64,000 nucleotides of DNA from Candidatus Gastranaerophilales bacterium. GTDB lineage: Bacteria; Cyanobacteriota; Vampirovibrionia; Gastranaerophilales; Gastranaerophilaceae. The position numbers were made by a program, and so were the translations under genes. Positions 12,245-31,370 of this stretch are shown here, piece by piece (the first letter of the stretch is position 1; each line of letters begins with the position of its first letter). The notes under the pieces are model-generated. The model was not told where the DNA came from and searched no databases. It saw nothing but the letters and a program-made list of their open reading frames with translations. The stretch is taken from contig CALUSW010000002.1 of NCBI GenBank assembly GCA_944323535.1, forward strand, positions 1 to 64,000, given 5' to 3'.

Positions 12245-12706
12245 ATGCCGTTTAGATATAGGTTACAAAAAGTATTGGATTTTAGAATCCGAAAAAAAGA
12301 AGAGCAGCTGCAGGAAGTTATTAAAGCAAAAAATGAGGTGGACAGAATACAAGGATTAATAGACGATAATAACCGGGAAATAGCAGGTGTTGTAAAAACA
12401 ATGCGAATGACTACGGATTTCAGAATGATGGACTCTTATGACAAGTATCTTAAACATCTGTACGAAAAAGGAGAAGAACTTGAAAATCAAAAAAAAGAAG
12501 CGGAAAGATTATTGGAAATAGAAAAACAAAAACTTGTTGAATGCGAAAAAGAGGTAAAAGTTTTTGAAAAACATAAAGAGAATGCTTTAGAAGCATATAA
12601 GGAAGAAGAAAAGCAGGCAGAAAACAAATTATTATCAGAAGTCGCAGTTCAGAAATATTATCAAAAAAACAAAGAAAAAAAAGAAGAAGAAGGCGAAGAT
12701 ATATAA
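12245..12706 (+). CDS. FliJ-like flagellar export chaperone
   Basis: 153 residues, almost entirely a charged coiled coil. The opening MPFRYRLQKVLDFRIRKKEE matches the FliJ start (F-x-Y-x-L-Q-x-V-L-x-x-R). FliJ is the stalk component of the flagellar type III export ATPase. It is followed 13 nt later by an unknown gene and then a rod/hook-type gene, which supports a flagellar role. There is no Shine-Dalgarno site before ATG 12245, and a TATAAA box lies at 12222-12227. FliI is not in the window. Confidence 0.75.
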   Translation: MPFRYRLQKVLDFRIRKKEEQLQEVIKAKNEVDRIQGLIDDNNREIAGVVKTMRMTTDFRMMDSYDKYLKHLYEKGEELENQKKEAERLLEIEKQKLVECEKEVKVFEKHKENALEAYKEEEKQAENKLLSEVAVQKYYQKNKEKKEEEGEDI

Positions 12707-12719
12707 AAAAGGAATATAG

Positions 12720-13358
12720 ATGAAAATAGATGTACAAAATACAAAAAAAAATATTGATAAACAGCAGGAGATTTTAGGTCAAATTCAGCCTGATGAATCT
12801 CAATTACTTACATCGGTAAATATGCCGTTTTCGGATATGCTTGCACAACAGTCAACTGATGAGCAAACTTCAAACATTATGAATAATTTATATTCATTAG
12901 GAATTGATTATAACTATGAATCAATGTTTATGAATTTTGAAGATGCAATGTTTTTTATAAATTTAACACAAAATGCTAATTTTTCCGTAGAAAATACTCA
13001 AACAGGTTCATTTCAGTCTTTACTTCAAACAGATATAGCTCAAAATGTTGTTTCGCAAAAAACGGTTGAAGTTACAAACCAGCTTGTTTCTTTAATAGAA
13101 AAGGCACAAAATACTCAAAAACCGGTTAGGATATCTTTTGATAATGACGTTTCCGTTGTTATAAAAATAGACAAACACGGAAAAATTACAGCGGAATTTA
13201 TTCCGGGAAATACTGAAGTAGAAAATTATCTTCGGAATAATATAGCTTCATTACGGCAGAAATTCGATGAGCAGAATCTTCCGTATAATGATTTATTTTA
13301 TAGACAAAACGGCAGACAAAATCGAAACAGAAATAAAAACGATAAAGGAGAAAAATAA
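12720..13358 (+). CDS. Unknown protein in flagellar-type operon
   Basis: 212 residues, rich in Gln and Asn. The first ~130 residues look disordered. A compact region at about 115-185 (PVRISFDNDVSVVIKIDKHGKITAEFIPGN, quoted in parts: PVRISFDNDVSVVIKI and HGKITAEFIPGN) ends in a basic Asn/Arg-rich tail. Placement between a FliJ-like and an FlgG-like gene, plus a structured C-terminal part after a disordered start, recalls hook-length control proteins (FliK). I see no decisive FliK motif. AAGGA precedes the ATG, and the stop overlaps the next start by 1 nt. Confidence 0.65.
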   Translation: MKIDVQNTKKNIDKQQEILGQIQPDESQLLTSVNMPFSDMLAQQSTDEQTSNIMNNLYSLGIDYNYESMFMNFEDAMFFINLTQNANFSVENTQTGSFQSLLQTDIAQNVVSQKTVEVTNQLVSLIEKAQNTQKPVRISFDNDVSVVIKIDKHGKITAEFIPGNTEVENYLRNNIASLRQKFDEQNLPYNDLFYRQNGRQNRNRNKNDKGEK

Positions 13359-14194
13359 TGCGTGACGCATTTATTAATGCTTTAAATACTCAAAAATTGA
13401 CGAGCGAATGGGTTAACGATTTATCAGAGAACCTTGTTAATGCATATACTCCCGGATATAGAGAGAAAAAATTTACTTTTAAAACCTTTTTGGACGGTTC
13501 CATTGCTGAAACCAGATTACGCAATGTCGGACAGGGAAAATCATCTCCTGGTACTTCCGATGAAAATATATTTTTAGAAGGTGCAGGATATTTTGTATTG
13601 AGAAATGACAAAGGAAGAATTGTCTATACAAGACTCGGTGAATTTAAGTTTGACGGAGAAGGCGTATATAGAAGTTCTGACGGGCAAGCCGTTCAGGGTT
13701 ATATCCTTAATGATAAAGGAGAGATTATGAACGGGGCAAAACCGGTTGATGCCGAGTCTTTTGTTGATACAGCATTTGACGGCGGCGCTGCTTCTGTTCC
13801 GACAACTAACATAAAATTATGGATAGATCCCAGCAATGGAAAATATCTCGGAAAATATGAAGAATTTGAATTTAAAGATGACGGTATATTATACGGTAAA
13901 GCAGACGGCGGGAAAATAATGACACCTTTATATAAAGTTGCAATAATTAATTTCCATAATCCTCAAATGCTTTATGAAGTTGATGACGGACAGTTTATTG
14001 AAACTGCGGAATCAGGTCGTCCTGTTGTCGGAAGAGGTGAAGTCAGAGGCGGTTTAATTGAACTTTCAAATGTTGATTTTGATGCAAATACCGCATATTA
14101 TCAACAGGCTCAGATGCAGCTGGAACTTGCAAATCAGTTGATTAAATCTCATAAACAGCTGCTTGAAAATGCAATTGAGCTTATGAGCAGCTAG
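13358..14194 (+). CDS. Flagellar hook/rod protein (FlgG/FlgE/FlgF family)
   Basis: 278 residues. The N-terminal rod signature is degenerate but recognisable: SENLVNAYTPGYREKKF in place of ANNIANVNTPGYK. The middle holds the family's FLEGAGYFVLRNDKGRIVYTR-type segment (given here as GAGYFVLRND and YTRLGEFKFD). The C-terminus ends in the typical NVDFDANTAYYQQAQMQLE...QLLENAIELM helix. It forms part of the axial rod or hook. It is close to FlgG in length (~260). A strong GGAG site precedes ATG 13358 and a terminator follows, so the three-gene operon ends here. Confidence 0.85.
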   Translation: MRDAFINALNTQKLTSEWVNDLSENLVNAYTPGYREKKFTFKTFLDGSIAETRLRNVGQGKSSPGTSDENIFLEGAGYFVLRNDKGRIVYTRLGEFKFDGEGVYRSSDGQAVQGYILNDKGEIMNGAKPVDAESFVDTAFDGGAASVPTTNIKLWIDPSNGKYLGKYEEFEFKDDGILYGKADGGKIMTPLYKVAIINFHNPQMLYEVDDGQFIETAESGRPVVGRGEVRGGLIELSNVDFDANTAYYQQAQMQLELANQLIKSHKQLLENAIELMSS

Positions 14195-14344: not shown

Positions 14345-15073
14345 ATGCGTATTTCTTCCGTAAACAGAAATATTTATGCCAACAAACTATATGGAATACA
14401 GTCGTCTCGAAATGCAGTTCTACAAGAGAAACTGCAGTTTCCGGATATAACAAATAAACATCAAAATAATAATTTGGTTCAGTTGCCTTTAAATACTTTA
14501 AAAGCAAATTTTTGTCCGTCTTTTGGAAAATACAGAAAAGTTGCCGATGTATATTTGAAAGACAAAGAGACAGGTGAATCAGTAAAAGCTTCTTTACAGC
14601 GTGAGTATGTCGGAGATTTTGTTTCTTTTAAACTTATGCATAGAAATGAAGAGGCAGGATATCTTGATATGGATTGCGGTGCTGTTTTCCCTGAAAATTC
14701 TTATGTCCTTCCGGAAATAGACAATGTTATTCCCAGAGTTTGTCATATACGTTCTCTTCTTGGTGATAAATATCATGGCATTGGTACAGCCTTAATAAAT
14801 GCTGCCGTTAATGAAAGCAGAAAAAACGGTGAAAAAGGCTATTTATGGCTTCAATCAGAAAAAGGTTATGCTCATTCGTTATCCAGATACCGCAGAGGTG
14901 AAAACCCGATCCCCTTTTATTATAAATTAGGTTTTAGAGCAATTGATGAAAATACCGATAAATTTATAAAGTTTTGTCTTGAAAAGTCAAAATACAGTGA
15001 ACTTCCCGATACTGCAATATTATTGCTGACTCCTGAAGCAGTGAGTAAAAATACAAAATATTTCCCGAAATAA
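14345..15073 (+). CDS. GNAT-family acetyltransferase-like protein
   Basis: 242 residues. Residues 137-151 (SLLGDKYHGIGTALI) form the acetyl-CoA-binding R/Q-x-x-G-x-G/A loop, and PIPFYYKLGFRAID near residue 194 is the typical GNAT C-terminal motif. Substrate unknown. The first ~65 residues are a low-complexity Asn-rich leader ending in CPSFGKY (residues 57-63), followed by the conserved fold. It has no hydrophobic signal peptide. A similar short leader occurs at the start of the giant protease-like gene at 18208. AGGAG lies upstream of ATG 14345. It is a single gene after a terminator. Confidence 0.75.
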   Translation: MRISSVNRNIYANKLYGIQSSRNAVLQEKLQFPDITNKHQNNNLVQLPLNTLKANFCPSFGKYRKVADVYLKDKETGESVKASLQREYVGDFVSFKLMHRNEEAGYLDMDCGAVFPENSYVLPEIDNVIPRVCHIRSLLGDKYHGIGTALINAAVNESRKNGEKGYLWLQSEKGYAHSLSRYRRGENPIPFYYKLGFRAIDENTDKFIKFCLEKSKYSELPDTAILLLTPEAVSKNTKYFPK

Positions 15074-18207: not shown

Positions 18208-21200
18208 ATGAAAATACATGCTGCCGGTGCATTAAAAAACACTTATAATACAGGATTTAAGAGTCTTCGTACAGATAAAAAAACAGTTTCTTTTCTTGAA
18301 AACGGTAAACTCCCGATACTTGAGAACAACAAAATAAATATATATGGGGCTTTAGCAGGTCTTGCAAAAGATCCGACAAGGGATAATATAGAATTTTTGC
18401 TTTCTGTTGCTGATAATTTGTCATACGGACAAAACGGGCAATCCGAATTCAAAAGAATTTTGGATGAAGAAGCAGTCACACCTTCAGAAAGAGAGAATAC
18501 TAATTGGTCAAAACTACTGGAAGATACTTTGCAGCGTGCTTTAAATAATTATACGGGAGAGGATGCCGGTGATCTTCAATATGAATTTTACAAAATTTTT
18601 TCTCAAGAAAAAAAATTAACTCCTGAACAGCAAAAATTGTTGGAACAAAGAAAAACATTGACGGATATTATAATTAATGAGCATGCCGTAAAAGATGAAG
18701 AACATTTAGAAAGAGCAGTAAGAGTCAGAGAAAATCTTGATTATTTTATTGCTTCATCAGAAATTCCTATGAATCAAAAACAATATTGTTTAGACAAATT
18801 TATATATTTAATGAGTCCTGATTATAAAATTAATAAACAGCTTGAAGATAAAAAGCTTCAGGTTCTTGATGAAATGCTTAATGATATGCTGATTAAGACT
18901 CCGGAAGATGATGTTTTAACAATAAAATCTGTTGACCAGAGACAATCAGGCATGTGTGCTGCTATTTCAATATGCAGAAAAGCTATGGCGTATGAAGATA
19001 AAGAAAGATATACGGATTTAATACTTGATGAATTAAGTGATTCTGAAACAATGTCTGTTTTTGATGTTACAGAACTTGGAAAAGGCAAAAAAATAAGTGT
19101 TCCTAAAGCAAATATTGACTATAATACCGCACTTGCAAAAGGTTATAGAATAATAGACGCATCTGCACATAACTGGATGCAAAACGCTCATGCAGGCGGT
19201 GACGGTTCTATAATTACTGAAAATTATATTCCTTTTGATGATAGCTATGGAGTATATAACGATTCAAGCTGGTATGAAGCTCTAGAAGAGCCTGTTGCCG
19301 GAATTAAATCTCTTTTAAAAGCATTAATAAAAGAAAGAGAACTATTAAGTTCTTTATTAAGGTATAAAAAGTTGTTAAAAACCTCCGGACAAAAACTTCT
19401 TACGGCTAAACAGAATGCTGTATTATTGCAGTCAAGTATAAACGGGAAATATAATGAAATTTTTGGTTATGTCTTTCCTGATATGCCGGATAAAGAGAAA
19501 TCAATTCTTATAAAATCAATTTGCAATTTTTGTAAAGGTAAAAATGCTGATAATGAAAAGAATATAGGAGAACCTCTTTCAAACGAAAACAAACAGCAAT
19601 TACTTGCAGATTTCATTATTGCTTCTGTCCCTGAATGTGATGATACTTCAAAAACAAGATTGTATGAAAAAATTTCTGTTATTTACGGGCTTGCTGATGA
19701 ATATTTGAAGTCGGAAAAAGAAATAAATGCGCTTTTAAGTTTTAACTCGCCCGGGGGAAAATATACTTATTATAAACGTCTGTTTAATCTTGCTGCGGCT
19801 CACAGGCTGGCAATTGAAGCTGATGTTAATCTTCCGGATGGTGTAATAAGGTTTGAAAAAGCATCAGGGCTTCCGCCGCGTAATGTACAAGTTCTAAGAT
19901 ATTTAAAGTCACTTGGCTTGAAATTACCGTCCGAAGCTCTAAGGCAGAACCTGAACAAGCATGAACATAAAGCATTATCAGATTCCGATATAGAAAAAAT
20001 GCTTGCCTCGGATATTATTAAAATTGAGTCGGTATTTCCTCAACAGCTTAATGAAATAGCAAATTCTCTTCTGGGAAAGAATATAAATGAAATTGTTACT
20101 GATACCTATAATGGAATAGCAGGAGCCATTGCAAACGGTGATGAGGAAGTACTTGAAAATACAAAGAGTATAATTGGACTTGAAAATAAGAGTAAACAAG
20201 AAGTTTTGGAGTTTTTAAATAACCGGATTGAAAAACTTTCAAAATTAAATTCAAATCAAATATGTGCTGATGCAATAAGAATGCTGGGCTTTGAAGATAC
20301 TTTTCATATGCTGGATATTTTTATTTCAACATTTATTAACTCTTTACAATCCGGTATTTCGGAAGAACAATACAAAAATCTTGCAAAACAATTTGGCGGA
20401 GAGGATAAAATTGAAGCCTCAATAGCGGAACAAAGGGCAGCGTATATAAGAATAAAAGATGAATATTCCGATATTCTTTCAAAATGGTCTGTTCCGTCTG
20501 CGCGGGCAAATATTCTGACGGCACTCGAAAAGAAAAATCAGATAATGCCAAGAAGGCAGCTTGATTACCTTAAGAAATGTTTTAATTCAATTGAGGCAGG
20601 CACAATAAAAAATGAAAGTATATATAATGTAAAAGAAAGGAGAAAAGCCAACGAAAAATTCTATAAATTCGATTCAGAGGCTCTTTCATTGTTTAATAAA
20701 ATTGAAAAATCCTTAAGTGATATAAAAAAATATTCTAAGGTGCAGTATCAGAATATAAATAAGATTTTATTTGATGAACTTGAAAACCAATATTCATATA
20801 TAGGAATGCTGAACGGACAATTCTGGGTACGAGAAGAAGGTTCATCCGGACTGGCTGCAAGCGAACAGTTAAGAATTATAGAGCAAATGACGGGTAAGCC
20901 GTATCATATAGAATATGATATAAATGATGCAGCAAAATTAATTAAAGAAGGTAATGGCAGCGGAATAATTTCAATGAGTGTTGATGACTCGGATTATGCA
21001 TTTCACGCCATGTATGTACCTTCTGTAACCGCCGAAACATTTACTAATAATCTAACAAATGAAAAAATTATTAAAGATATATTATGGATGGATAATTCAT
21101 GGGGCAGGGCTGAAAAAGATAACTATTGGAGAGGAACGGACGGACGCTATCATACTGATTACGGGAACGGTTACGGCTGGAAAAACGGCTTTATTCTTTC

Positions 21201-24003
21201 AGATAAATATACTATTGGGCTTCCTGTAGATGAAATACAAGGGGCAATTGGTGTTGAGAAAGAAGATCAGGAAGAATTCGGGCTTTTTACCGATATGGTA
21301 TTACCGGGAACTCCTGTTAATACATATCAACGTCTTTATAGAATGTTTAACTATATTTTGAATATAAATGAGGGTGAACAGCTGCTTTCGGCATTGGAAA
21401 ACTCCTTATCTTCAGGATATAAATTTAACATAAATGAACTTGAATCGCTTGATTTACTTGCTGAAGCAAAAACAGACAGAATTGCAAAGCGTATCAAAGA
21501 TGAAATTAAATCGCGTCATGATTTTGATATGCTTGATGATAATGATGAATTAAAACTAGCATTTAAAAAATTGGCTTTGTATCTATCTACGGATGACCGG
21601 GCTTTTTTGGACAGAGTCAGCCTTGCTTCTGATTCTAAAGAACTGGAGGAAATAAAACAAGATATAATACAGGATCATATTGATAAGTTTGGCGGAATAA
21701 TTGCAAAATCCGATGCCGTAATTGATGTTATTTTCCTTTCTTCGGAAAGTGAGTTTAAACAACTGTTTAAAGATTTATATGATAAATTTGGAATTTCTCT
21801 TACTGATGATGAAAAAGATAGACTTATAAATTCAATATTTATTAACGAGGAAGATATTAAAAATATTGACGGTTCATTAGCTTCATTAACGGACTATTTC
21901 GATAAACAAATAATCAAAGCCTCAGAAAATATTGAAGATGAAAAAGCTTCGGAATTTTTTACAGTTACATCAAAATCAATAATACGGGATGTTATAGACA
22001 AAAATGTAAGAATAAAGGATTTAAACAGTCCTGTTCTTGCAAATTCACCGCTTCAAAAAGAATTTATTGCTGCTGTGGATAAGTATTTAAACCCTCATTC
22101 TGATGAAGAACTTTTACAATTAATACAAGGAATGCAAAATGCGGATTACGATACGGTTAACGGATTTATTGATGCATTAACTCCTGAAGATATAGGTGTA
22201 AAAATTAAAGATCCGTATGATTATGTATTGAAATATAAAGCAGGCAGCAGCGAAGTTACAAGAGCTTTTTCCGAAGTCGTAGGCACCGAAGAAATATATG
22301 CAAATTTAAACACTTCTTCGGATGATGAGGATTCAACACCTGAGGAAATATACAGAACTTTATATATTAAACTGGCTGAAATGGATGTTCAAAAATATAT
22401 AAATGCTTTTAAAGCGGAAGCTTTTCAGAAATATAAGGTTCGTCAGGCTTTTCCGGAACCTGTTGTATTATCAGATGAAGTTATTTCAGATACTGTTAAT
22501 AGCTTTCTGTTATCACTCAAAGAAGCTTCTGATAATATTGCTTCTGCTGATTATGTTTATAAAGTCTTATCATCATATGAAGATTTTATTTCTAAATTTT
22601 CTAAAAATGATATTTATAAAGAATTTATTAAGAGTCATGATGTGGAAATAACACCTGAAAATGCTGATACAATTAAAGCTATGGTTTCGTCATTAAGAAA
22701 TGTTTATAATATTACAAAAATGGACGCTTCTTTAAATGTTCTTACAGTTCCGGCAGAAAAATTGATAAAACTGCTGGAAAACTCTTCCGGATATATTTCC
22801 GGTTCTCACGCCGGTTTGTATATTAAAGAACTATCTTCTGCATATCAAGATATGATTTCTTCCGGCAGTACAAAAGAAAAATTTGTACAGATGAAAAAAG
22901 AAGAACTTATAAATATGCGTAAGAATATTTCATTGTTTGCTAATTGTAATGTTGAGCCAAAGTACAGAGATGAACTTTTACAAAAGTTATACAGATATAT
23001 AAAATTATTCAGCAATAATGCTCCGCAGGATAAGCAGGATGAATTGGCAAATCAAATTGAGGATTTAATTATAAATAAACATATAGTAAAAAATCCTCAA
23101 ATACTTTTGAAAGAAACGATTAATCTTCTTCTTCAAGGTAAAAAAGACTCTAACGAATATTCTGTTTTACGTTTATATTTGACTATGGCATTGAAAGTAG
23201 CACAACAGACAAAGATTCAGTATAAGCTTGTACAAAATCAGCATAGCGGAATTACGTCAAAAGTAAAAGAATTGCTTCCTTTATTTAATGTTTTGCTTTC
23301 TGACGGCACAACCGCAGAAATGGACAGTGATGTAGGGATGTTGTATCTTGTCGAGCAGCTTCAAAATGCAGGTGATAATTATATTACGCTTAAGCTGTTT
23401 TTGGAACAAACAGGACTCGCAAGAAAAGCTCTCGGGGCATTGCTTAAAAATTTTGATGTAAATAAAGCATGTAATTTAGTTGATGAAAAACATGATATGA
23501 TTATAACTTCTTTAAGTGATGCTGCTAAATTACAGGGGTTTATTTCAGAATTTTTCGAAAAAAGCAAAATTAAATATAAATCTCTATCTGATGCAATAAG
23601 CCATTTAAATGCATATATAGAAAGAAAATCAAAAAATTATGACAGCAGTGATGTTTTCAAAAAATACAGTGAATATATGAAGTCTGTTGCTTGTTCAAAC
23701 TCATTGGATACAATATCTTCTTCTATGATAAATCCTCTTTTACAATCCGTTATTTCTGATGCGTTTGAATATATTATGTCGGATATTAACAATCAGCTTG
23801 ATTCTATATCTGACTATGAAGAAATGATTTCAAGAAAATATGAATTATTTGATTCTATTAATGTTCCGGAAGATTGTGAAGAATTTGTTCTGCGGCAGAA
23901 ATTCTTTGATGATTATGAAAATGTTATAGAATATATCCGGAATAAGAAACAGGAAATATTGGATTATGCAAAAAATCTTGAATTGATTGTTGATATTTCT
24001 TGA
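18208..24003 (+). CDS. Giant protein with a split papain-like cysteine protease domain
   Basis: 1931 residues from ATG 18208, chosen because AAAGG lies about 7 nt upstream. An in-frame ATG at 18169 would add 13 residues but has no site. A C1-like catalytic set is visible: Gln244 (oxyanion) and Cys250 in DQRQSGMCAAIS, His933 in YAFHAMYV, and Asn963 in WMDNSWG. The Gln-to-Cys spacing of six and the NSWG motif match papain. About 680 residues of mostly helical sequence separate Cys from His, where papain has about 130. Roughly 930 further helical residues follow. There is no hydrophobic signal peptide. The N-terminus (MKIHAAGALKNTYNTGFK) is a short Asn/Lys-rich leader. Substrate and location are unknown. 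A monocistronic layout is likely. Confidence 0.75.
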   Translation: MKIHAAGALKNTYNTGFKSLRTDKKTVSFLENGKLPILENNKINIYGALAGLAKDPTRDNIEFLLSVADNLSYGQNGQSEFKRILDEEAVTPSERENTNWSKLLEDTLQRALNNYTGEDAGDLQYEFYKIFSQEKKLTPEQQKLLEQRKTLTDIIINEHAVKDEEHLERAVRVRENLDYFIASSEIPMNQKQYCLDKFIYLMSPDYKINKQLEDKKLQVLDEMLNDMLIKTPEDDVLTIKSVDQRQSGMCAAISICRKAMAYEDKERYTDLILDELSDSETMSVFDVTELGKGKKISVPKANIDYNTALAKGYRIIDASAHNWMQNAHAGGDGSIITENYIPFDDSYGVYNDSSWYEALEEPVAGIKSLLKALIKERELLSSLLRYKKLLKTSGQKLLTAKQNAVLLQSSINGKYNEIFGYVFPDMPDKEKSILIKSICNFCKGKNADNEKNIGEPLSNENKQQLLADFIIASVPECDDTSKTRLYEKISVIYGLADEYLKSEKEINALLSFNSPGGKYTYYKRLFNLAAAHRLAIEADVNLPDGVIRFEKASGLPPRNVQVLRYLKSLGLKLPSEALRQNLNKHEHKALSDSDIEKMLASDIIKIESVFPQQLNEIANSLLGKNINEIVTDTYNGIAGAIANGDEEVLENTKSIIGLENKSKQEVLEFLNNRIEKLSKLNSNQICADAIRMLGFEDTFHMLDIFISTFINSLQSGISEEQYKNLAKQFGGEDKIEASIAEQRAAYIRIKDEYSDILSKWSVPSARANILTALEKKNQIMPRRQLDYLKKCFNSIEAGTIKNESIYNVKERRKANEKFYKFDSEALSLFNKIEKSLSDIKKYSKVQYQNINKILFDELENQYSYIGMLNGQFWVREEGSSGLAASEQLRIIEQMTGKPYHIEYDINDAAKLIKEGNGSGIISMSVDDSDYAFHAMYVPSVTAETFTNNLTNEKIIKDILWMDNSWGRAEKDNYWRGTDGRYHTDYGNGYGWKNGFILSDKYTIGLPVDEIQGAIGVEKEDQEEFGLFTDMVLPGTPVNTYQRLYRMFNYILNINEGEQLLSALENSLSSGYKFNINELESLDLLAEAKTDRIAKRIKDEIKSRHDFDMLDDNDELKLAFKKLALYLSTDDRAFLDRVSLASDSKELEEIKQDIIQDHIDKFGGIIAKSDAVIDVIFLSSESEFKQLFKDLYDKFGISLTDDEKDRLINSIFINEEDIKNIDGSLASLTDYFDKQIIKASENIEDEKASEFFTVTSKSIIRDVIDKNVRIKDLNSPVLANSPLQKEFIAAVDKYLNPHSDEELLQLIQGMQNADYDTVNGFIDALTPEDIGVKIKDPYDYVLKYKAGSSEVTRAFSEVVGTEEIYANLNTSSDDEDSTPEEIYRTLYIKLAEMDVQKYINAFKAEAFQKYKVRQAFPEPVVLSDEVISDTVNSFLLSLKEASDNIASADYVYKVLSSYEDFISKFSKNDIYKEFIKSHDVEITPENADTIKAMVSSLRNVYNITKMDASLNVLTVPAEKLIKLLENSSGYISGSHAGLYIKELSSAYQDMISSGSTKEKFVQMKKEELINMRKNISLFANCNVEPKYRDELLQKLYRYIKLFSNNAPQDKQDELANQIEDLIINKHIVKNPQILLKETINLLLQGKKDSNEYSVLRLYLTMALKVAQQTKIQYKLVQNQHSGITSKVKELLPLFNVLLSDGTTAEMDSDVGMLYLVEQLQNAGDNYITLKLFLEQTGLARKALGALLKNFDVNKACNLVDEKHDMIITSLSDAAKLQGFISEFFEKSKIKYKSLSDAISHLNAYIERKSKNYDSSDVFKKYSEYMKSVACSNSLDTISSSMINPLLQSVISDAFEYIMSDINNQLDSISDYEEMISRKYELFDSINVPEDCEEFVLRQKFFDDYENVIEYIRNKKQEILDYAKNLELIVDIS

Positions 24004-24050: not shown

Positions 24051-24326
24051 ATGAAAAAATTTTTATCCATATTTTATATTTTTGTTATATTTTCCGGATT
24101 TTTTGTTCCGTGTTTCGCAATAAATGTAGGAACATATAAAACCGAAACGGAATACGGTTTGTTAGACGGTTTTAAAATTAATTGGAAAAGAAAAGACAAA
24201 AATCAGCCTTTTATAGAACCAAGAGAAGAATCAACTAAAAAAGAGGCTGAACGTGATTTAAGATATTATAAAGAATCTGAATATGAACGTACAAGATATA
24301 TGTATGACGGAAGAGCTATACTTTAG
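24051..24326 (+). CDS. Small exported protein of unknown function
   Basis: 91 residues. A clear signal peptide covers about residues 1-24 (PCFA, cleavage before INVG). The mature ~67 residues are very charged (EPREESTKKEAERDLRYYKE) and probably helical. AGGAG precedes the ATG and an intrinsic terminator follows. No family recognised. It lies downstream of the giant protease-like gene with a 47-nt gap. Confidence 0.65.
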   Translation: MKKFLSIFYIFVIFSGFFVPCFAINVGTYKTETEYGLLDGFKINWKRKDKNQPFIEPREESTKKEAERDLRYYKESEYERTRYMYDGRAIL

Positions 24327-24533: not shown

Positions 24534-26315
24534 CTATAATATATTTGACGTAACAGTAAAGTGGAATCTGCAATTTCTTCTGTTATATGGATGGTTGTCA
24601 AAGGTTGCATAATCGTAGAAACTTTTACCAATCGGGAAGCCCCAATACATGTTTGCAGAAATATATTTTGTTAATTTAACTACAATACCCGGACCGGCAC
24701 TCATTAAATACTGGGTTCTGTTTCCGAATTGGTCAGTTTGGAACCTGTTCCCGACCCAGCCAAAATCGTAGAAACCTGCAAGTTGTATACTGTCACTAAT
24801 AAATTTATATTTTTCGGGAAGTATTGCTCTTAATCCCGGGATTGGAGTTCTTAACTCAAAACTTGCTGTCATACCGTAGTCACCGAGGAAGAAACCTTCA
24901 TCATAACCTCTTACGGAAGCTATACCGCCTATCTGCATTGCTTCAGACGGGTACAGGTGTCTGTTTGCATATTGACCGTTAACCTGTAATATTGCCATTA
25001 CATTTTTAGGCAAAACCTGTAAACGCGCTGCACTTGCCGTTAATTTTAAGAAATTGTTGCTTGATAAATTCCGGGCTTTGTTATAATCAGAAGCATCTAT
25101 AGGAATACCTCCTGCAACACCCCCGTTAAATAACCATCTTCCGTAAAAATCATCTTTAATATCGGTCAAAGATGCTCTGATAACTCTTGAACGGTAGGAT
25201 GTATTATAATCATATGCACCTACAGTTGTATCTGTATTTCTTAAATCTAAAGTAATATCACCGTATAACCTGAAATCGTCACCTTGCGCCAATCTTCTTG
25301 AAACACCTATGAATACGTCATGTGATTCACCTTTTATATTCAGGTGTTCAAGAGCATTACCCAGACGGACTTTAGAATAAGAATAACCGATATTTAATCT
25401 TGTATCATTTTTAGCTATAGGAAGCGAATACATACCGCCTACACCCAATGAACGTGTAGAAAGTGCAACCGTCCCCATTAAAGTATCGCCGTGACCGGTT
25501 ACGTCATGCAGACCCGCATATAAAACACCTCTTTGTGTACCGATAGCGTCCCTTCCCTGATTATCATACCTGATATCAAAGTTTAGAGGGAATCTGTCTT
25601 TTACATCTAAGGTTACATCTGAAAATTCTTCAGATTCTTCGTTATCAGCAAAAGAAACGGCACCTTTCATATATTCTTCGGAGTTCATCTCGGTCAAAGC
25701 ATTACGTACATCTTTTACGTTTAAAACTTTACCCGGTTCAATATTATGGTCAATTAAATATTTCTTATTTAAGTAAGAAGCTCTTTCCCATTTGCCGGGA
25801 TTAATTTCAATATTACCGTATTTACCTTCAAGAATTTTAATTTCAACGCTTCCGTTCTTTACTTTTTGAGGAGGAAGATAAGCTATTGTTGAAATATATC
25901 CTTTTGCCTGATAATAATCGGTAATATCATTTGCAGACATTATTAAATCATTAATAGTAACATCCTGCCCGATTTTAAAGTCGACCAATCGCATTAATAC
26001 ATATGTCGGGAAAACGGTATTGCCGGTTATATTTATATTTTTTAATTTAAATGTTACCTGCTCTGTATTAAGCAAATCCATTTTTTGTCTGACTTCCTCT
26101 TCTATAACGGCTGGATCTTTTGTCTCTTTATACTGCTCTTTTGCTCTTTCTCTGTATCTTGCCGCTTCAATAAAGTTTCTGTTGTCCAATTGCCCTGCAT
26201 CATATCCGCTTTGTGCAGGTGTGGCAAAATCATATATTGAAGCCGTAAATGCACAGTTCCCAACAATAATCATTGAGCATATTAAGGATGTTTTAAAAAA
26301 TAGGTTTTTCATCAT
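24534..26315 (-). CDS. Two-partner secretion outer-membrane transporter (TpsB, ShlB/FhaC family)
   Basis: 593 residues. A signal peptide (about 1-25) is followed by a helical stretch, two POTRA-type domains (about 95-235, beginning FKLKNINITGNTVFPTYV) and a 16-stranded-barrel region. The family's hallmark VRGYDEG lies around residue 468 (GGIASVRGYDEGFFLGD). The final residues are strand-like. TpsB proteins carry TpsA exoproteins across the outer membrane. It diverges from tpsA1 across a 322-nt intergenic region, and two TpsA genes follow, so it most likely serves both. It shows that the organism has an outer membrane. Confidence 0.93.
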   Translation of the reverse strand: MMKNLFFKTSLICSMIIVGNCAFTASIYDFATPAQSGYDAGQLDNRNFIEAARYRERAKEQYKETKDPAVIEEEVRQKMDLLNTEQVTFKLKNINITGNTVFPTYVLMRLVDFKIGQDVTINDLIMSANDITDYYQAKGYISTIAYLPPQKVKNGSVEIKILEGKYGNIEINPGKWERASYLNKKYLIDHNIEPGKVLNVKDVRNALTEMNSEEYMKGAVSFADNEESEEFSDVTLDVKDRFPLNFDIRYDNQGRDAIGTQRGVLYAGLHDVTGHGDTLMGTVALSTRSLGVGGMYSLPIAKNDTRLNIGYSYSKVRLGNALEHLNIKGESHDVFIGVSRRLAQGDDFRLYGDITLDLRNTDTTVGAYDYNTSYRSRVIRASLTDIKDDFYGRWLFNGGVAGGIPIDASDYNKARNLSSNNFLKLTASAARLQVLPKNVMAILQVNGQYANRHLYPSEAMQIGGIASVRGYDEGFFLGDYGMTASFELRTPIPGLRAILPEKYKFISDSIQLAGFYDFGWVGNRFQTDQFGNRTQYLMSAGPGIVVKLTKYISANMYWGFPIGKSFYDYATFDNHPYNRRNCRFHFTVTSNIL

Positions 26316-26637
26316 TCCACTCTCTATTTAAGTTTCTGTTTAAATAATACTATGTTTTTTATATTATGATACTACGGAAAAATAAAAATACTATAAATAT
26401 TATACTATCATTCCCTATTATTTCATAATTCAAACATATGAAATCAGAACATAATTAAATTTGCTTTAAATTAAACTAAATATAACATATCTTAACATTT
26501 GAATTATTTTATATTTAGCGATTATAATTTATATTAAGCTTTATTAATATTTATACAAATAATAGCAAATATTTTTATTTACGATATTTTAGGAAAAGCA
26601 GTTATCTATAAATTACTATCAGAGAATGGAGTACACA
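26316..26637. promoter_or_regulatory. Divergent tpsB/tpsA intergenic region
   Basis: 322 nt of very AT-rich DNA without a supported gene. The best promoter for tpsA1 is TTGAAT (26499-26504) with TATAAT (26523-26528), 18 nt apart, giving a leader of about 100 nt before ATG 26638. A tpsB promoter must lie in the left half, but I cannot choose among several TA-rich boxes. Confidence 0.55.
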
Positions 26638-29103
26638 ATGAGAAAACTTTTAACTACGGCAGCCGCAATTACTGTTTTCGCCTCAATGAGTATATCACCG
26701 GCAATGGCAGATGTAGCAGCCGGGGCATTACCGAACTTAGGTAATGCGACGAATGCAGATGTTACAACAAGCGGATCAAATATGAATATTCAGATTCAAG
26801 GCGGTCAGGGCGGACTTGGAACATTGAACTGGAACAGCTTTAATGTAGGAAAAGATGCGACAGTAAACTATGAATTTACGGCACATAACCAAACGGCATT
26901 AAACAAGGTAGATGCGGCAGGCGGAATGTCGCAGATATACGGAAACATAACGACATCAGGGTGTGCAGGCTGCGGATATGATGCAACCGGAAAAGTAATA
27001 TTGATAAACCCCAACGGAGTATTATTCGGTGACGGAGCAAATGTAAACTTAAATTCATTGACAGTATCAACAATGGATGGAACATTTGACCAGACAAAAA
27101 ACGAATTACAATTAAATAAAGGTGCAAATCAATCAGATTTTGGAATAGTAGTACAAGAAGGGGCAAATATATACGGAGATAAGAACGTAACATTTGCATC
27201 AAATAATGTAACGATGTACAACGGATCTAAGATATCAACCAATGCAGGAGCAAACGTAGGCGACACATCATTTGGAAAGATAAAGATAGTAACGGCAGAC
27301 GGAGTAAATTTTGCATATTATAATAACGGAGCAGTAAAAGAGGTTTCGAATATAACGGGATCGGCCGATAAGATGGTTGTGTCGTTAAACGGAGCATTAG
27401 AATCAGGGAATATAGATATAAGGAACTATTCTAATAATGAAGCGAGTGAAATTAATTTAAACGGAGCTACATTGAAAGCTACAAAAGCAGTTGAAGGTAA
27501 TGACGGAAATATCTGGTTAACGGCATCAAATAAGATAGTAACGGAGGGGACGAAATTTGAGACGGTAAACCAGACCGGAGCAGAAGATAGAAACGGCGGG
27601 AACGTAAGATTTTTAGCCGGGAAGAAGGTGTCAATCGGAACAGCTGATATAGATGCGGTAGGAAATGTAGAGATAACATCGCAGGGGAATGACATAGCAG
27701 TAGATAATTCAACAATAGATACAGCGAAAGATGTTACTTTAACTGCGGCGGGTATTGCTTCTGTGCAAAATAACTCAACTGTAAACGGCAAAAATATATC
27801 TGTCAGCGGAAATAATAGAGCGCAGGTTGTATCTTCCGGATTGAATGCTGCTGAAGATGTAAATCTTGTTTCTGACGGTCAGATGGTTTGGACTGACAAT
27901 GCAAATATTAATGCAGGAAAAGATATCAATACTTCTGCAAATAACGGATACCTTTTATTAAATGATTCTATTTTTACAGCAAGAAACAATGTTAACTTAA
28001 CCTCTAAAGATACGGTTACATCTTCAAGATTATCAGGTTCAACTTTTAATGCTGAAAAAGATGTTAATGTTGAATCAACTGCAGAAAGCATCTTGTTAAC
28101 TTCTACAGAACAATTTAAACCGAAAAATGAATTAAACCTGACTGCAGCAAAAAATGTTGAAATTAATTCAACAGATGATTTAGCAACTTCTAAAACAAAT
28201 ATTAAAGCAGGAGATAATGTTTTCTTAACATCTTCTAACGGCAGTGTAAATGTTGATAGTTCAACTAAATTCCTTGCTGCTGACAAAATATATATTAACG
28301 GCGCTAAAGACGTTACAACTACAGGTGTTGTTGATTTAAATAACATCCAGTCAAATATCAAAGCAGGTGAAAATGTTAATGTTAATTTAACCGGTGTTGA
28401 AAACAGAAACAACGGTCTTATCGCAGAAGCAGGAAAGGACATGACTATTACTACCGACGGTACATTGTCAGTATCAAGCTTAAAAGCTGCCAATGATATG
28501 ACAATTAACGCAAATAAAGTAATTGCAGGACTTCCTTATACAACGGAAGAAAAATTACCCGGTGATGATAGTGAGCGTTCTTATATTGAAGTGGGAGGTA
28601 CTTTCAATTCAAATGTTGCGGAAGATAATTATGTTATCACTGCATCAGGCGATTTGACAGATGATGGACAATATAATCAGAAGCATCATATTCAATACGG
28701 TGATGATGAAAAAATCTTACTGGTTAACAAGAGACCTGTTGATAATGAAGTAACCGATCCTGATATTCCGGGAATAGATAACGGTGATGATATTGATGTT
28801 GTTAACCCCGGTGATGATGGCGGTTCAACTCCTACTACGCCGACTGATCCTTCAACTGATCCTACAACACCGACAGATCCGTCTATAGAACCGACTGTAC
28901 CTACGGATCCTTCTACAGATCCTACAACACCGACAGATCCGTCTACTGATCCTACGGAATGTCCTGATATACCGGATAATGATGAGTCGGTTGATGAAGA
29001 TGCTCCGGAATTGGGCGGTAATACCAATTCTCTCAGAATAAAATTAGATACAAGCAATTTATCTAAATATTCAATTCAAACAAATGAGCAAAAGAAAATA
29101 TAA
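26638..29103 (+). CDS. Two-partner secretion exoprotein TpsA1 (filamentous-haemagglutinin type)
   Basis: 821 residues from ATG 26638. GGAG (26628-26631) at 6-nt spacing, and the sister gene's start, favour it over ATG 26626. Order: signal peptide about 1-25 (SISPAMADV), then a TPS secretion domain to about residue 270. It carries GTLNWNSFNVGKDA, a GCAGCGY cysteine pair and LINPNGVLFGDGANVN. A right-handed beta-helix follows, with Asn/Thr-rich repeats ([VI]-[NT]-[LI]-T), to about residue 690. A PTDPS-type linker lies near 735-790, and the tail is short and unrelated to TpsA2. Likely surface-exposed or released: adhesin, inhibitor or biofilm factor. Residues 13-370 come from a block identical in tpsA2. 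Confidence 0.9.
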   Translation: MRKLLTTAAAITVFASMSISPAMADVAAGALPNLGNATNADVTTSGSNMNIQIQGGQGGLGTLNWNSFNVGKDATVNYEFTAHNQTALNKVDAAGGMSQIYGNITTSGCAGCGYDATGKVILINPNGVLFGDGANVNLNSLTVSTMDGTFDQTKNELQLNKGANQSDFGIVVQEGANIYGDKNVTFASNNVTMYNGSKISTNAGANVGDTSFGKIKIVTADGVNFAYYNNGAVKEVSNITGSADKMVVSLNGALESGNIDIRNYSNNEASEINLNGATLKATKAVEGNDGNIWLTASNKIVTEGTKFETVNQTGAEDRNGGNVRFLAGKKVSIGTADIDAVGNVEITSQGNDIAVDNSTIDTAKDVTLTAAGIASVQNNSTVNGKNISVSGNNRAQVVSSGLNAAEDVNLVSDGQMVWTDNANINAGKDINTSANNGYLLLNDSIFTARNNVNLTSKDTVTSSRLSGSTFNAEKDVNVESTAESILLTSTEQFKPKNELNLTAAKNVEINSTDDLATSKTNIKAGDNVFLTSSNGSVNVDSSTKFLAADKIYINGAKDVTTTGVVDLNNIQSNIKAGENVNVNLTGVENRNNGLIAEAGKDMTITTDGTLSVSSLKAANDMTINANKVIAGLPYTTEEKLPGDDSERSYIEVGGTFNSNVAEDNYVITASGDLTDDGQYNQKHHIQYGDDEKILLVNKRPVDNEVTDPDIPGIDNGDDIDVVNPGDDGGSTPTTPTDPSTDPTTPTDPSIEPTVPTDPSTDPTTPTDPSTDPTECPDIPDNDESVDEDAPELGGNTNSLRIKLDTSNLSKYSIQTNEQKKI
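26675..27746 (+). repeat. 1,072-nt duplicated block, copy 1
   Basis: By eye this is identical, wobble positions included, to 29434-30505 at an offset of 2,759 nt. It encodes residues 13-370 of TpsA1. Identity stops abruptly at both edges, and the flanks are only similar at protein level. Confidence 0.9.
28831..28960 (+). repeat. Coding PTDPS-type repeats in TpsA1
   Basis: Tandem copies of PTDPS and STDPTTPTDPS are encoded by near-identical DNA, for example CCTACAACACCGACAGATCC at about 28861 and 28921. It reads as a proline-rich, probably extended linker before the C-terminal tail. The sister protein lacks it, so copy number may vary between strains. Confidence 0.8.
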
Positions 29104-29123
29104 TATTAATTACTTATATCTTT

Positions 29124-29155
29124 AAGGGAGAACATTTATTGTTCTCCTTTTTTTT
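29124..29155 (+). terminator. Terminator of tpsA1
   Basis: GGGAGAAC (29126-29133) pairs with GTTCTCCT (29141-29148; last pair G-T) around a 7-nt loop, followed by a long T run. Confidence 0.9.
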
Positions 29156-29396
29156 GTAACAAATTCTTAACAGATTTCTTTTATTTTGTAAATTTGTCAG
29201 ACTAAATTTTCTTTATAAGTATATAATAGGATGTATTATTAGTATTTAAGAGAGATTTATTTTTTAGTAAAAAATTGTAACAATAAAAAAACAAAATGTT
29301 AACAAAACTTGGTTTTATAGCAATTTTTTTTTTCAGAGTATTTAAAACAGATATATAAGATTAATAATAAGAATAAGAAATAAAAGGAAGAAGAAC

Positions 29397-31370
29397 ATGA
29401 AAAAACTTTTAAGCACAACAATTGCAGTCGGTATTTTCGCCTCAATGAGTATATCACCGGCAATGGCAGATGTAGCAGCCGGGGCATTACCGAACTTAGG
29501 TAATGCGACGAATGCAGATGTTACAACAAGCGGATCAAATATGAATATTCAGATTCAAGGCGGTCAGGGCGGACTTGGAACATTGAACTGGAACAGCTTT
29601 AATGTAGGAAAAGATGCGACAGTAAACTATGAATTTACGGCACATAACCAAACGGCATTAAACAAGGTAGATGCGGCAGGCGGAATGTCGCAGATATACG
29701 GAAACATAACGACATCAGGGTGTGCAGGCTGCGGATATGATGCAACCGGAAAAGTAATATTGATAAACCCCAACGGAGTATTATTCGGTGACGGAGCAAA
29801 TGTAAACTTAAATTCATTGACAGTATCAACAATGGATGGAACATTTGACCAGACAAAAAACGAATTACAATTAAATAAAGGTGCAAATCAATCAGATTTT
29901 GGAATAGTAGTACAAGAAGGGGCAAATATATACGGAGATAAGAACGTAACATTTGCATCAAATAATGTAACGATGTACAACGGATCTAAGATATCAACCA
30001 ATGCAGGAGCAAACGTAGGCGACACATCATTTGGAAAGATAAAGATAGTAACGGCAGACGGAGTAAATTTTGCATATTATAATAACGGAGCAGTAAAAGA
30101 GGTTTCGAATATAACGGGATCGGCCGATAAGATGGTTGTGTCGTTAAACGGAGCATTAGAATCAGGGAATATAGATATAAGGAACTATTCTAATAATGAA
30201 GCGAGTGAAATTAATTTAAACGGAGCTACATTGAAAGCTACAAAAGCAGTTGAAGGTAATGACGGAAATATCTGGTTAACGGCATCAAATAAGATAGTAA
30301 CGGAGGGGACGAAATTTGAGACGGTAAACCAGACCGGAGCAGAAGATAGAAACGGCGGGAACGTAAGATTTTTAGCCGGGAAGAAGGTGTCAATCGGAAC
30401 AGCTGATATAGATGCGGTAGGAAATGTAGAGATAACATCGCAGGGGAATGACATAGCAGTAGATAATTCAACAATAGATACAGCGAAAGATGTTACTTTA
30501 ACTGCAGGCAGAATCGCTTCAATCCAAAACAATTCAAATGTTAAAGGAAGAAATGTAAAAATTACAGGTAAAGACAGAGCTCAGGTTGTTGACTCAAAAG
30601 TTGACGCTTCTGATATAGAAATCACAGCAGATAATGTTTGGTTCAGAAATGCTGATTTAAAAGCTGCAAACGAAATTAATGCAAAAGGAGCAAACGGTTA
30701 CGTAAATGCTGAAAATTCCGTAATGCAGGCAAATAAAATAACATTAGATGCTGCAACAAATGTAATTGGTAAAATTGATTTGAAAGGCAGCCAGACAAAT
30801 ATTAATGCCGGAAACGATGTTGATGTAGAACTTGCTAATGTCGGTGTCAGAGAAAACGGTTTAATAGCAAAAGCAGGCAACAATATGACTGTTACTACAG
30901 ACGGTACATTGTCAGTATCAAGCTTAATATCCGGTAATGATATGACAATCAATGCTGATAAAGTAATTGCAGGTTATCCGTTAACTGACAATTCATTAGA
31001 AACACCCGGGGACAGTGCTGATCGTTCATATATCGAAGTTGGCGGAACATTTACTTCAAATACTGCTAATGACAGCTATGTAGTTACAAAATCTGCAGAC
31101 TTAACAGATGACGGACAGTATATGCAAAGACATCACATTGAATACGGCAACGGCGAAGAAAAAATCTTACTGGTTAACAAAAGACCATATGTTGCACCTC
31201 CAACCGATGATACGGATGTTAATACAGATCAAGCTGAAATGTTAAATAAAATACCTCGTCAGCCAGCAACATTCAATAATAATACAAATATTAATAACGG
31301 AAGAACAACATTTGTAGATGTATTCGCTGCAGCCAGCCAGATTGAAATAGTTGAAGATGAAGAAGAATAA
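29397..31370 (+). CDS. Two-partner secretion exoprotein TpsA2
   Basis: 657 residues. It has the same signal peptide end and TPS domain as TpsA1 (residues 13-370 identical), then its own beta-helix region, shorter by about 130 residues. A conserved subterminal domain is homologous to TpsA1: TTDGTLSVSSL, DMTIN, RSYIEVGGTF, LTDDGQY and KILLVNKRP. The C-terminus (TFVDVFAAASQIEIVEDEEE) is acidic and differs from TpsA1. A GGAAGAAGAA stretch precedes the ATG. The gene has its own terminator and a 293-nt upstream gap, so it is probably transcribed separately. The TpsB at 24534 is the only transporter in view. Confidence 0.9.
   Translation: MKKLLSTTIAVGIFASMSISPAMADVAAGALPNLGNATNADVTTSGSNMNIQIQGGQGGLGTLNWNSFNVGKDATVNYEFTAHNQTALNKVDAAGGMSQIYGNITTSGCAGCGYDATGKVILINPNGVLFGDGANVNLNSLTVSTMDGTFDQTKNELQLNKGANQSDFGIVVQEGANIYGDKNVTFASNNVTMYNGSKISTNAGANVGDTSFGKIKIVTADGVNFAYYNNGAVKEVSNITGSADKMVVSLNGALESGNIDIRNYSNNEASEINLNGATLKATKAVEGNDGNIWLTASNKIVTEGTKFETVNQTGAEDRNGGNVRFLAGKKVSIGTADIDAVGNVEITSQGNDIAVDNSTIDTAKDVTLTAGRIASIQNNSNVKGRNVKITGKDRAQVVDSKVDASDIEITADNVWFRNADLKAANEINAKGANGYVNAENSVMQANKITLDAATNVIGKIDLKGSQTNINAGNDVDVELANVGVRENGLIAKAGNNMTVTTDGTLSVSSLISGNDMTINADKVIAGYPLTDNSLETPGDSADRSYIEVGGTFTSNTANDSYVVTKSADLTDDGQYMQRHHIEYGNGEEKILLVNKRPYVAPPTDDTDVNTDQAEMLNKIPRQPATFNNNTNINNGRTTFVDVFAAASQIEIVEDEEE
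29434..30505 (+). repeat. 1,072-nt duplicated block, copy 2
   Basis: Partner of 26675-27746; encodes residues 13-370 of TpsA2. Identity also covers third codon positions, which points to very recent duplication or continuing gene conversion. Confidence 0.9.

What the first reader, a model, noticed from the sequence alone, without database searches (positions are those of the whole stretch)
18208..24003. Giant (1931-residue) protein with a papain-like active site split by a ~680-residue insertion
Sequence: Gln244-x5-Cys250 (DQRQSGMCAAIS), His933 (FHAMYV) and Asn963 (WMDNSWG) reproduce the papain Q...C, H, N set, with the exact Q-to-C spacing of six and the NSWG motif. Known family: in papain (C1) Cys and His are about 134 residues apart and total length is about 220-350. 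Here the gap is ~683 residues, with another ~930 residues of helix-rich sequence after it. Inference: a helical domain inserted in the protease fold, perhaps a large effector or self-processing enzyme. There is no signal peptide. I know of no described family with this layout.
Basis: partly seen in the sequence, partly recalled or inferred. Interest (0 to 1): 0.75.

Follow-up and report, generated by a model that had tools for sequence, protein, structure and literature searches.

The report
Giant split papain-like enzyme, gut bacteria
An uncultured gut bacterium carries a very large protein (1931 amino acids) in which a papain-type active site is interrupted by a long helical stretch; over a hundred related species keep exactly the same catalytic residues, so it is very probably a real but undescribed enzyme family, whose target is unknown.

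Summary
Window 18208-24003 encodes one 1931-aa protein, single copy, in a Gastranaerophilales genome. No Pfam, NCBIfam, PADLOC, PHROGs or PDB sequence family matches it credibly. I collected 124-128 homologues from the order. Gln244 and Cys250 are invariant in 126/126, and His933, Asn963, Trp965 and Gly966 in 128/128. Only 26 of 1931 columns are invariant, all in two blocks (173-381 and 839-1046). C250 and H933 are the only invariant Cys and His. This is the signature of a papain-like Q/C/H/N site in two halves, separated by a fast-evolving, probably helical segment of about 460 residues; the C-H gap is 467-765 across the family. The gene follows genus lines and evolves much faster than its neighbours.

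Not shown: the fold. Ala/Gly follows the Cys instead of an aromatic residue, so it is not a C1 member by sequence. "No known layout" is overstated: C1B peptidases have a 294-residue C-H gap and USP deubiquitinases large inserts at the same point. Effector or self-processing roles have no support. Best reading: a new, probably active, clan-CA-like cysteine hydrolase family.

The parts
18208..24003 (+). Gene for the 1931-aa (220 kDa, pI 5.0) giant papain-like protein, single copy in the genome
   Evidence: homologues
18256..18276 (+). N-terminal motif F17-[KGT]-[GS]-x-R21-x-D23, the best conserved stretch of the first 172 residues (F 121/124, R 123/124)
18724..19350 (+). N-terminal half of the presumed catalytic domain (residues 173-381), 15 of the 26 invariant columns
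18937..18939 (+). Codon of Gln244 (presumed oxyanion-hole Gln), 126/126 conserved
18955..18957 (+). Codon of Cys250 (presumed nucleophile), 126/126 conserved; only invariant Cys of the protein
19351..20721 (+). Variable segment between the halves (residues 382-838, about 457 residues); mean column conservation 0.34 against 0.61 and 0.50 in the flanking halves; length varies among homologues (C-H gap 467-765)
   Evidence: helix prediction only low confidence
20722..21345 (+). C-terminal half of the presumed catalytic domain (residues 839-1046), 11 invariant columns
21004..21006 (+). Codon of His933, 128/128 conserved; only invariant His of the protein
21094..21105 (+). Codons of N963-S964-W965-G966 (N, W, G 128/128; S or T at 964)
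21346..24000 (+). C-terminal region (residues 1047-1931), mean column conservation 0.33, no invariant column; 265-1349 residues follow the Asn in homologues (some of the short ones are cut by contig ends)

Best explanation
The protein represents an undescribed, apparently order-specific family of giant papain-like (clan CA type) cysteine hydrolases, most likely a peptidase or deconjugating peptidase. Cys250 is activated by His933, which Asn963 orients, and Gln244 supports the oxyanion. The catalytic domain is made from two sequence blocks (173-381 and 839-1046) that must come together across a segment of about 460 residues. That segment and the C-terminal region of about 890 residues form rapidly evolving arms that would bind a substrate or partner and confine access to the site. 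It probably acts inside the cell, or is exported by a route without a Sec signal. Shown: the invariance of the four residues, the two-block conservation, the variable insert, vertical inheritance. Inferred: the fold, the catalytic activity, the role of the arms, the location.
For: Q and C 126/126, H, N, W and G 128/128 over about 130 genomes of the order. 26 invariant columns of 1931, all in the two blocks; C250 and H933 are the sole invariant Cys and His. Exact papain spacing Q-x5-C, and DN[ST]WG with His 20-33 residues before Asn; C1A and C1B measured here have 18 and 21-22. The best hhalign local alignment with C1A members, though not significant, puts Q-x5-C and H...NSWG in register. Tree by genus: g1 36/36 monophyletic, support 0.999. 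Identity within the genus 35-51% against 57-96% for most neighbouring genes, which fits variable arms on a fixed catalytic core.
Against: No significant match to any papain-like Pfam, NCBIfam or PDB sequence, even with 57-58-member profiles. Profile-profile comparison with C1A/C1B is not significant. The residue after Cys is Ala/Gly, whereas C1 has Trp. AlphaFold models unusable. Coevolution does not single out contacts between the halves above background. No substrate, activity or location evidence. Two same-genus copies contain an in-frame TAG, which may be assembly error or decay.
Confidence: 0.72

Rival explanations
1. The papain-like core is real but does other chemistry than peptide hydrolysis (amidase, deamidase, transglutaminase or acyltransferase), as many papain-fold families do.
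For: The papain-like superfamily includes amidases, transglutaminases, acyltransferases and deamidases with Cys-His-polar triads (PMC10318531). The Ala after Cys and absence from C1 profiles place it away from the peptidases.
Against: The NSWG motif and Q-x5-C spacing are typical of the papain/calpain cluster of proteases rather than of the NlpC/P60 or transglutaminase clusters (established knowledge of these families).
Confidence: 0.2
2. It is an exported effector or surface protein acting on the animal host or on competing microbes, delivered without a Sec signal, possibly marked by the N-terminal F[KGT][GS]xR[TE]D motif.
For: Fast evolution, giant size, near-invariant N-terminal motif (F17 121/124, R21 123/124), gut habitat of the lineage (PMC3787301).
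Against: No signal peptide, no conserved secretion-system genes beside it, chromosomal, single copy, vertically inherited by genus, absent from phage and plasmid collections. A related SF[KGT]G tag also sits on housekeeping-type proteins such as a glycogen-synthase-like ORF.
Confidence: 0.15
3. The catalytic residues are conserved for structure only; the protein is a scaffold or a dead enzyme.
For: Activity untested.
Against: Pseudoenzymes usually lose Cys or His; here both are the only invariant Cys and His of the protein in 124 copies, together with the Gln.
Confidence: 0.05
4. The resemblance to papain is convergent motif similarity in a different fold.
For: No profile reaches a papain family; no usable model.
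Against: Six motif residues with papain order and spacing (Q-x5-C, H, N-[ST]-W-G) are all invariant.
Confidence: 0.1

Closest known systems
MEROPS C1A / Pfam PF00112 papain-cathepsin
   Same: Q-x5-C, His, N-S-W-G in this order; H-N 18 in members measured here against 20-33
   Different: C-H gap 135 in members measured here against 683; no profile match; Ala instead of Trp after Cys; no Sec signal; 1931 aa
MEROPS C1B / Pfam PF03051 bleomycin hydrolase, PepC
   Same: No Sec signal; long insert between the Cys and His halves (C-H 294, H-N 21-22); (E/D)NSWG motif looks alike
   Different: Insert about 390 residues shorter; Cys-Trp; about 450 aa in all; no profile match; present in other members of the phylum but not found in this genome
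USP/UCH deubiquitinases (MEROPS C19, Pfam PF00443)
   Same: Extensive insertion between the Cys helix and the His-bearing sheet of a papain-like fold (PMC10318531)
   Different: Eukaryotic; other motifs around Cys and His; no sequence match
Uncharacterised ~480-aa Gastranaerophilales protein (L280:2733-4205 minus; in this genome G000:C7:40068-41285)
   Same: Cys motif N-x2-H-S-G-T-C-x-A-x-S aligned by the N-half profile; candidate H400 and N421 with H-N 21
   Different: Match is weak (E 0.028 per genome, 12 bits); Val at the Gln position; C-H gap 202; in 187 of 192 genomes of the order. A lead, not a demonstrated relative

Membership tests
Papain-like superfamily (clan CA) | Cys, His and a third polar residue (Asn) conserved in this order | tested here: met
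   C250 126/126, H933 and N963 128/128
Papain-like superfamily (clan CA) | Cys at N-terminus of the core helix packed on a beta-barrel that carries His and Asn (common fold) | tested here: inconclusive
   AlphaFold with 2 sequences pLDDT 37.7 and 33.1; coevolution inconclusive
MEROPS C1 (PF00112 / PF03051) | Recognised by the family HMM | tested here: not met
   No C1 hit in P0001 or in 28 members; PF00112 and PF03051 silent in this genome
MEROPS C1 (PF00112 / PF03051) | Gln six residues before Cys | tested here: met
   Q244 126/126
MEROPS C1 (PF00112 / PF03051) | Aromatic residue (Trp) directly after the catalytic Cys | tested here: not met
   Ala 32/34, Gly 2/34 at position 251; C1A and C1B members here have CW
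MEROPS C1 (PF00112 / PF03051) | N-S-W-G around the Asn | tested here: met
   N, W, G invariant; S or T at 964
MEROPS C1B (PF03051) | Cys-His gap near 294 and length near 450 aa | tested here: not met
   Gap 683 here, 467-765 in the family
MEROPS C1 (PF00112 / PF03051) | Cysteine peptidase activity, E-64 sensitive | not testable with these tools
   needs purified protein
USP/UCH (C19) | Family Cys-box and His-box motifs and Pfam PF00443 match | tested here: not met
   No Pfam match

The most novel reading that the evidence does not exclude
A founding family of a new clan-CA branch: a 220-kDa enzyme in which the papain-like domain is a small, invariant core inside two large, rapidly diverging helical arms, so far known from one bacterial order only, possibly derived from a compact ~480-aa papain-like protein found in almost every member of that order, and acting on a lineage-specific substrate or host target.
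Probability: 0.3. Interest if true: 0.65.

Novelty: new variant of a known kind. Interest (0 to 1): 0.5.

Why it matters
If the fold is confirmed, it adds an unlisted family to a well-studied superfamily, with one of its larger insertions between the catalytic Cys and His, in a common but mostly uncultured gut order whose proteins are largely unannotated. The invariant core with fast-evolving arms makes it a good candidate for a lineage-specific processing enzyme, and gives a clear test (C250A).

Tried and rejected
Mean-field DCA on the two halves gave attractive pairs (A259-I891, D264-K897, S353-I958), but controls with other region pairs gave equal or stronger signals and a whole-protein run showed no enrichment: discarded. 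Profile searches of the PDB: chance hits only. Single-member Pfam hits (Rotamase E 2e-4 in 1 of 28, calpain 0.04 in 1 of 28): taken as chance. Internal repeats by profile-profile comparison: only overlap artefacts and weak helical similarity (an earlier run failed on file format and reprinted a stale result, both discarded). A partner role for the 91-aa downstream ORF (24051-24326): rejected, its homologues occur in genera without the giant. Idea that the giant cleaves an N-terminal SF[KGT]G tag on other proteins: the tag is also present in G061, where no giant was found. Viral, phage and plasmid origin: no match. Literature: no paper found that describes the family.

Full report
What was checked. 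The ORF 18208-24003 encodes 1931 residues without a stop. Q244, C250, H933, D962, N963, W965 and G966 are where the finding says. The genome is a Gastranaerophilales genome of 1.9 Mb (a same-genus relative with a named record is a Candidatus Gastranaerophilales MAG, L031), and the gene is single copy there.

No known family. P0001 and 28 relatives give no consistent hit in Pfam or NCBIfam, and P0001 none of note in PADLOC or PHROGs; there is none in the PDB by sequence or profile. There is no relative in viral contigs, phage or plasmid records.

The family. Homologues occur in all 34 same-genus genomes searched, mostly full length (fragmentary in some incomplete genomes), and in several other families of the order. 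The C-half profile finds it in 133 of 383 genomes of the order, normally as one copy of about 1370-2210 residues. N-half profiles find it in 48 of 386 genomes of the phylum and 57 of 289 of the class, all listed strong matches being in this order. A tree of the two halves groups sequences by genus (g1 36/36, support 0.999; g31, g32, g33, g37, g39, g44 and g51 each monophyletic), so descent is mainly vertical with losses.

Conservation of the active site. In 34 members Q244, C250, H933 and N963 are invariant, in 54 likewise, and in the widest set Q and C are 126/126 and H, N, W, G 128/128. Of 1931 columns only 26 are invariant over 124 proteins. All 26 lie in 173-381 (15) or 839-1046 (11), and C250 and H933 are the only invariant Cys and His. 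The C-H gap ranges from 467 to 765 and H-N from 20 to 33. Position 251 is Ala or Gly, unlike the Trp of C1 peptidases.

Anatomy. Conservation gives five blocks: N-terminal region 1-172 with a near-invariant motif F17xxxR21xD23; catalytic half 173-381; variable segment 382-838; catalytic half 839-1046; variable C-terminal region 1047-1931. The extra length between the halves is thus about 460 residues. C1A members measured here have a gap of 135, C1B members 294. In C1B and in USP/UCH deubiquitinases the same topological position already carries an insertion (the latter stated in PMC10318531), so the layout is an extreme of a known theme.

What could not be shown. The structure tool admits only window sequences and loci from the search for related loci or the DNA search; that left a two-sequence alignment, and both models are useless (pLDDT 37.7 and 33.1). 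Coevolution on 124-126 sequences did not separate contacts between the halves from background. Profile-profile comparison with C1A and C1B members is not significant, although with C1A the best local alignment of each half sits on Q-x5-C and on H...NSWG. The fold and the convergence of the residues therefore remain inference from motif and conservation.

Surroundings. No conserved operon: neighbours differ between genera. The 91-aa signal-peptide ORF downstream follows the gene in most of the genus but exists in genera without it. The giant is 35-51% identical to same-genus relatives where most neighbours are 57-96%.

A possible compact relative. A scan of the class with the N-half profile gave one weak extra match (E 0.028 for one genome), in a 491-aa protein with ...KDINVMHSGTCVAAS..., and further on GHE and CND in papain-like spacing (C198, H400, N421). 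It scores above 1985 other non-family ORFs (12.2 against 7.7 bits), a comparison biased by how it was found. Its family is in 187 of 192 genomes of the order, including this one at G000:C7:40068-41285. The Gln position is Val. It is a lead only.

Verdict. Observation confirmed. A papain-like cysteine-enzyme reading is well supported by invariance (about 0.85 for a papain-type active site, 0.72 for the full statement), unproven structurally, and not a member of MEROPS C1 by sequence. Effector and self-processing roles are speculation.

Noticed in passing
L280:2733-4205 (-); own genome G000:C7:40068-41285: Unannotated ~480-aa protein in 187 of 192 genomes of the order, with a Cys motif like the giant's and candidate His and Asn at papain-like spacing; no Pfam or PDB match.
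   Followed up: partly
N-termini in G006:C1 (L091-L109), G115:C2 (L245-L264) and G061:C1 (L225-L244): Several unrelated lineage proteins, one resembling glycogen synthase, begin with a low-complexity stretch ending in [ST]-F-[KGT]-G (SF[KGT]G 3-10 times denser in the first 60 residues than in the rest, small numbers); also in a genome where no giant was found.
   Followed up: partly
window 24534-31370: A two-partner-secretion-type outer-membrane transporter ORF (24534-26315, minus) beside two filamentous-haemagglutinin-like exoprotein ORFs (26626-29103, 29397-31370) whose first ~350 residues are nearly identical, which suggests a recent tandem duplication.
   Followed up: no
window 24051-24326: 91-aa secreted-looking ORF directly downstream of the giant, syntenic in most of the genus but with homologues in genera lacking the giant.
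   Followed up: yes
window 14345-15073: Acetyltransferase-like ORF with a long N-terminal extension ending in SFGK; like the giant it diverges fast (44-59% in the genus).
   Followed up: no
G029:C50:7074-12749 and G008:C14:19214-24961: Two same-genus copies of the giant have an in-frame TAG; assembly error or decay not distinguished.
   Followed up: no
window 12245-14194: ORFs that look flagellar (FliJ-like, and a hook/basal-body-like ORF 92-96% identical in the genus) in a gut lineage with reduced genomes.
   Followed up: no
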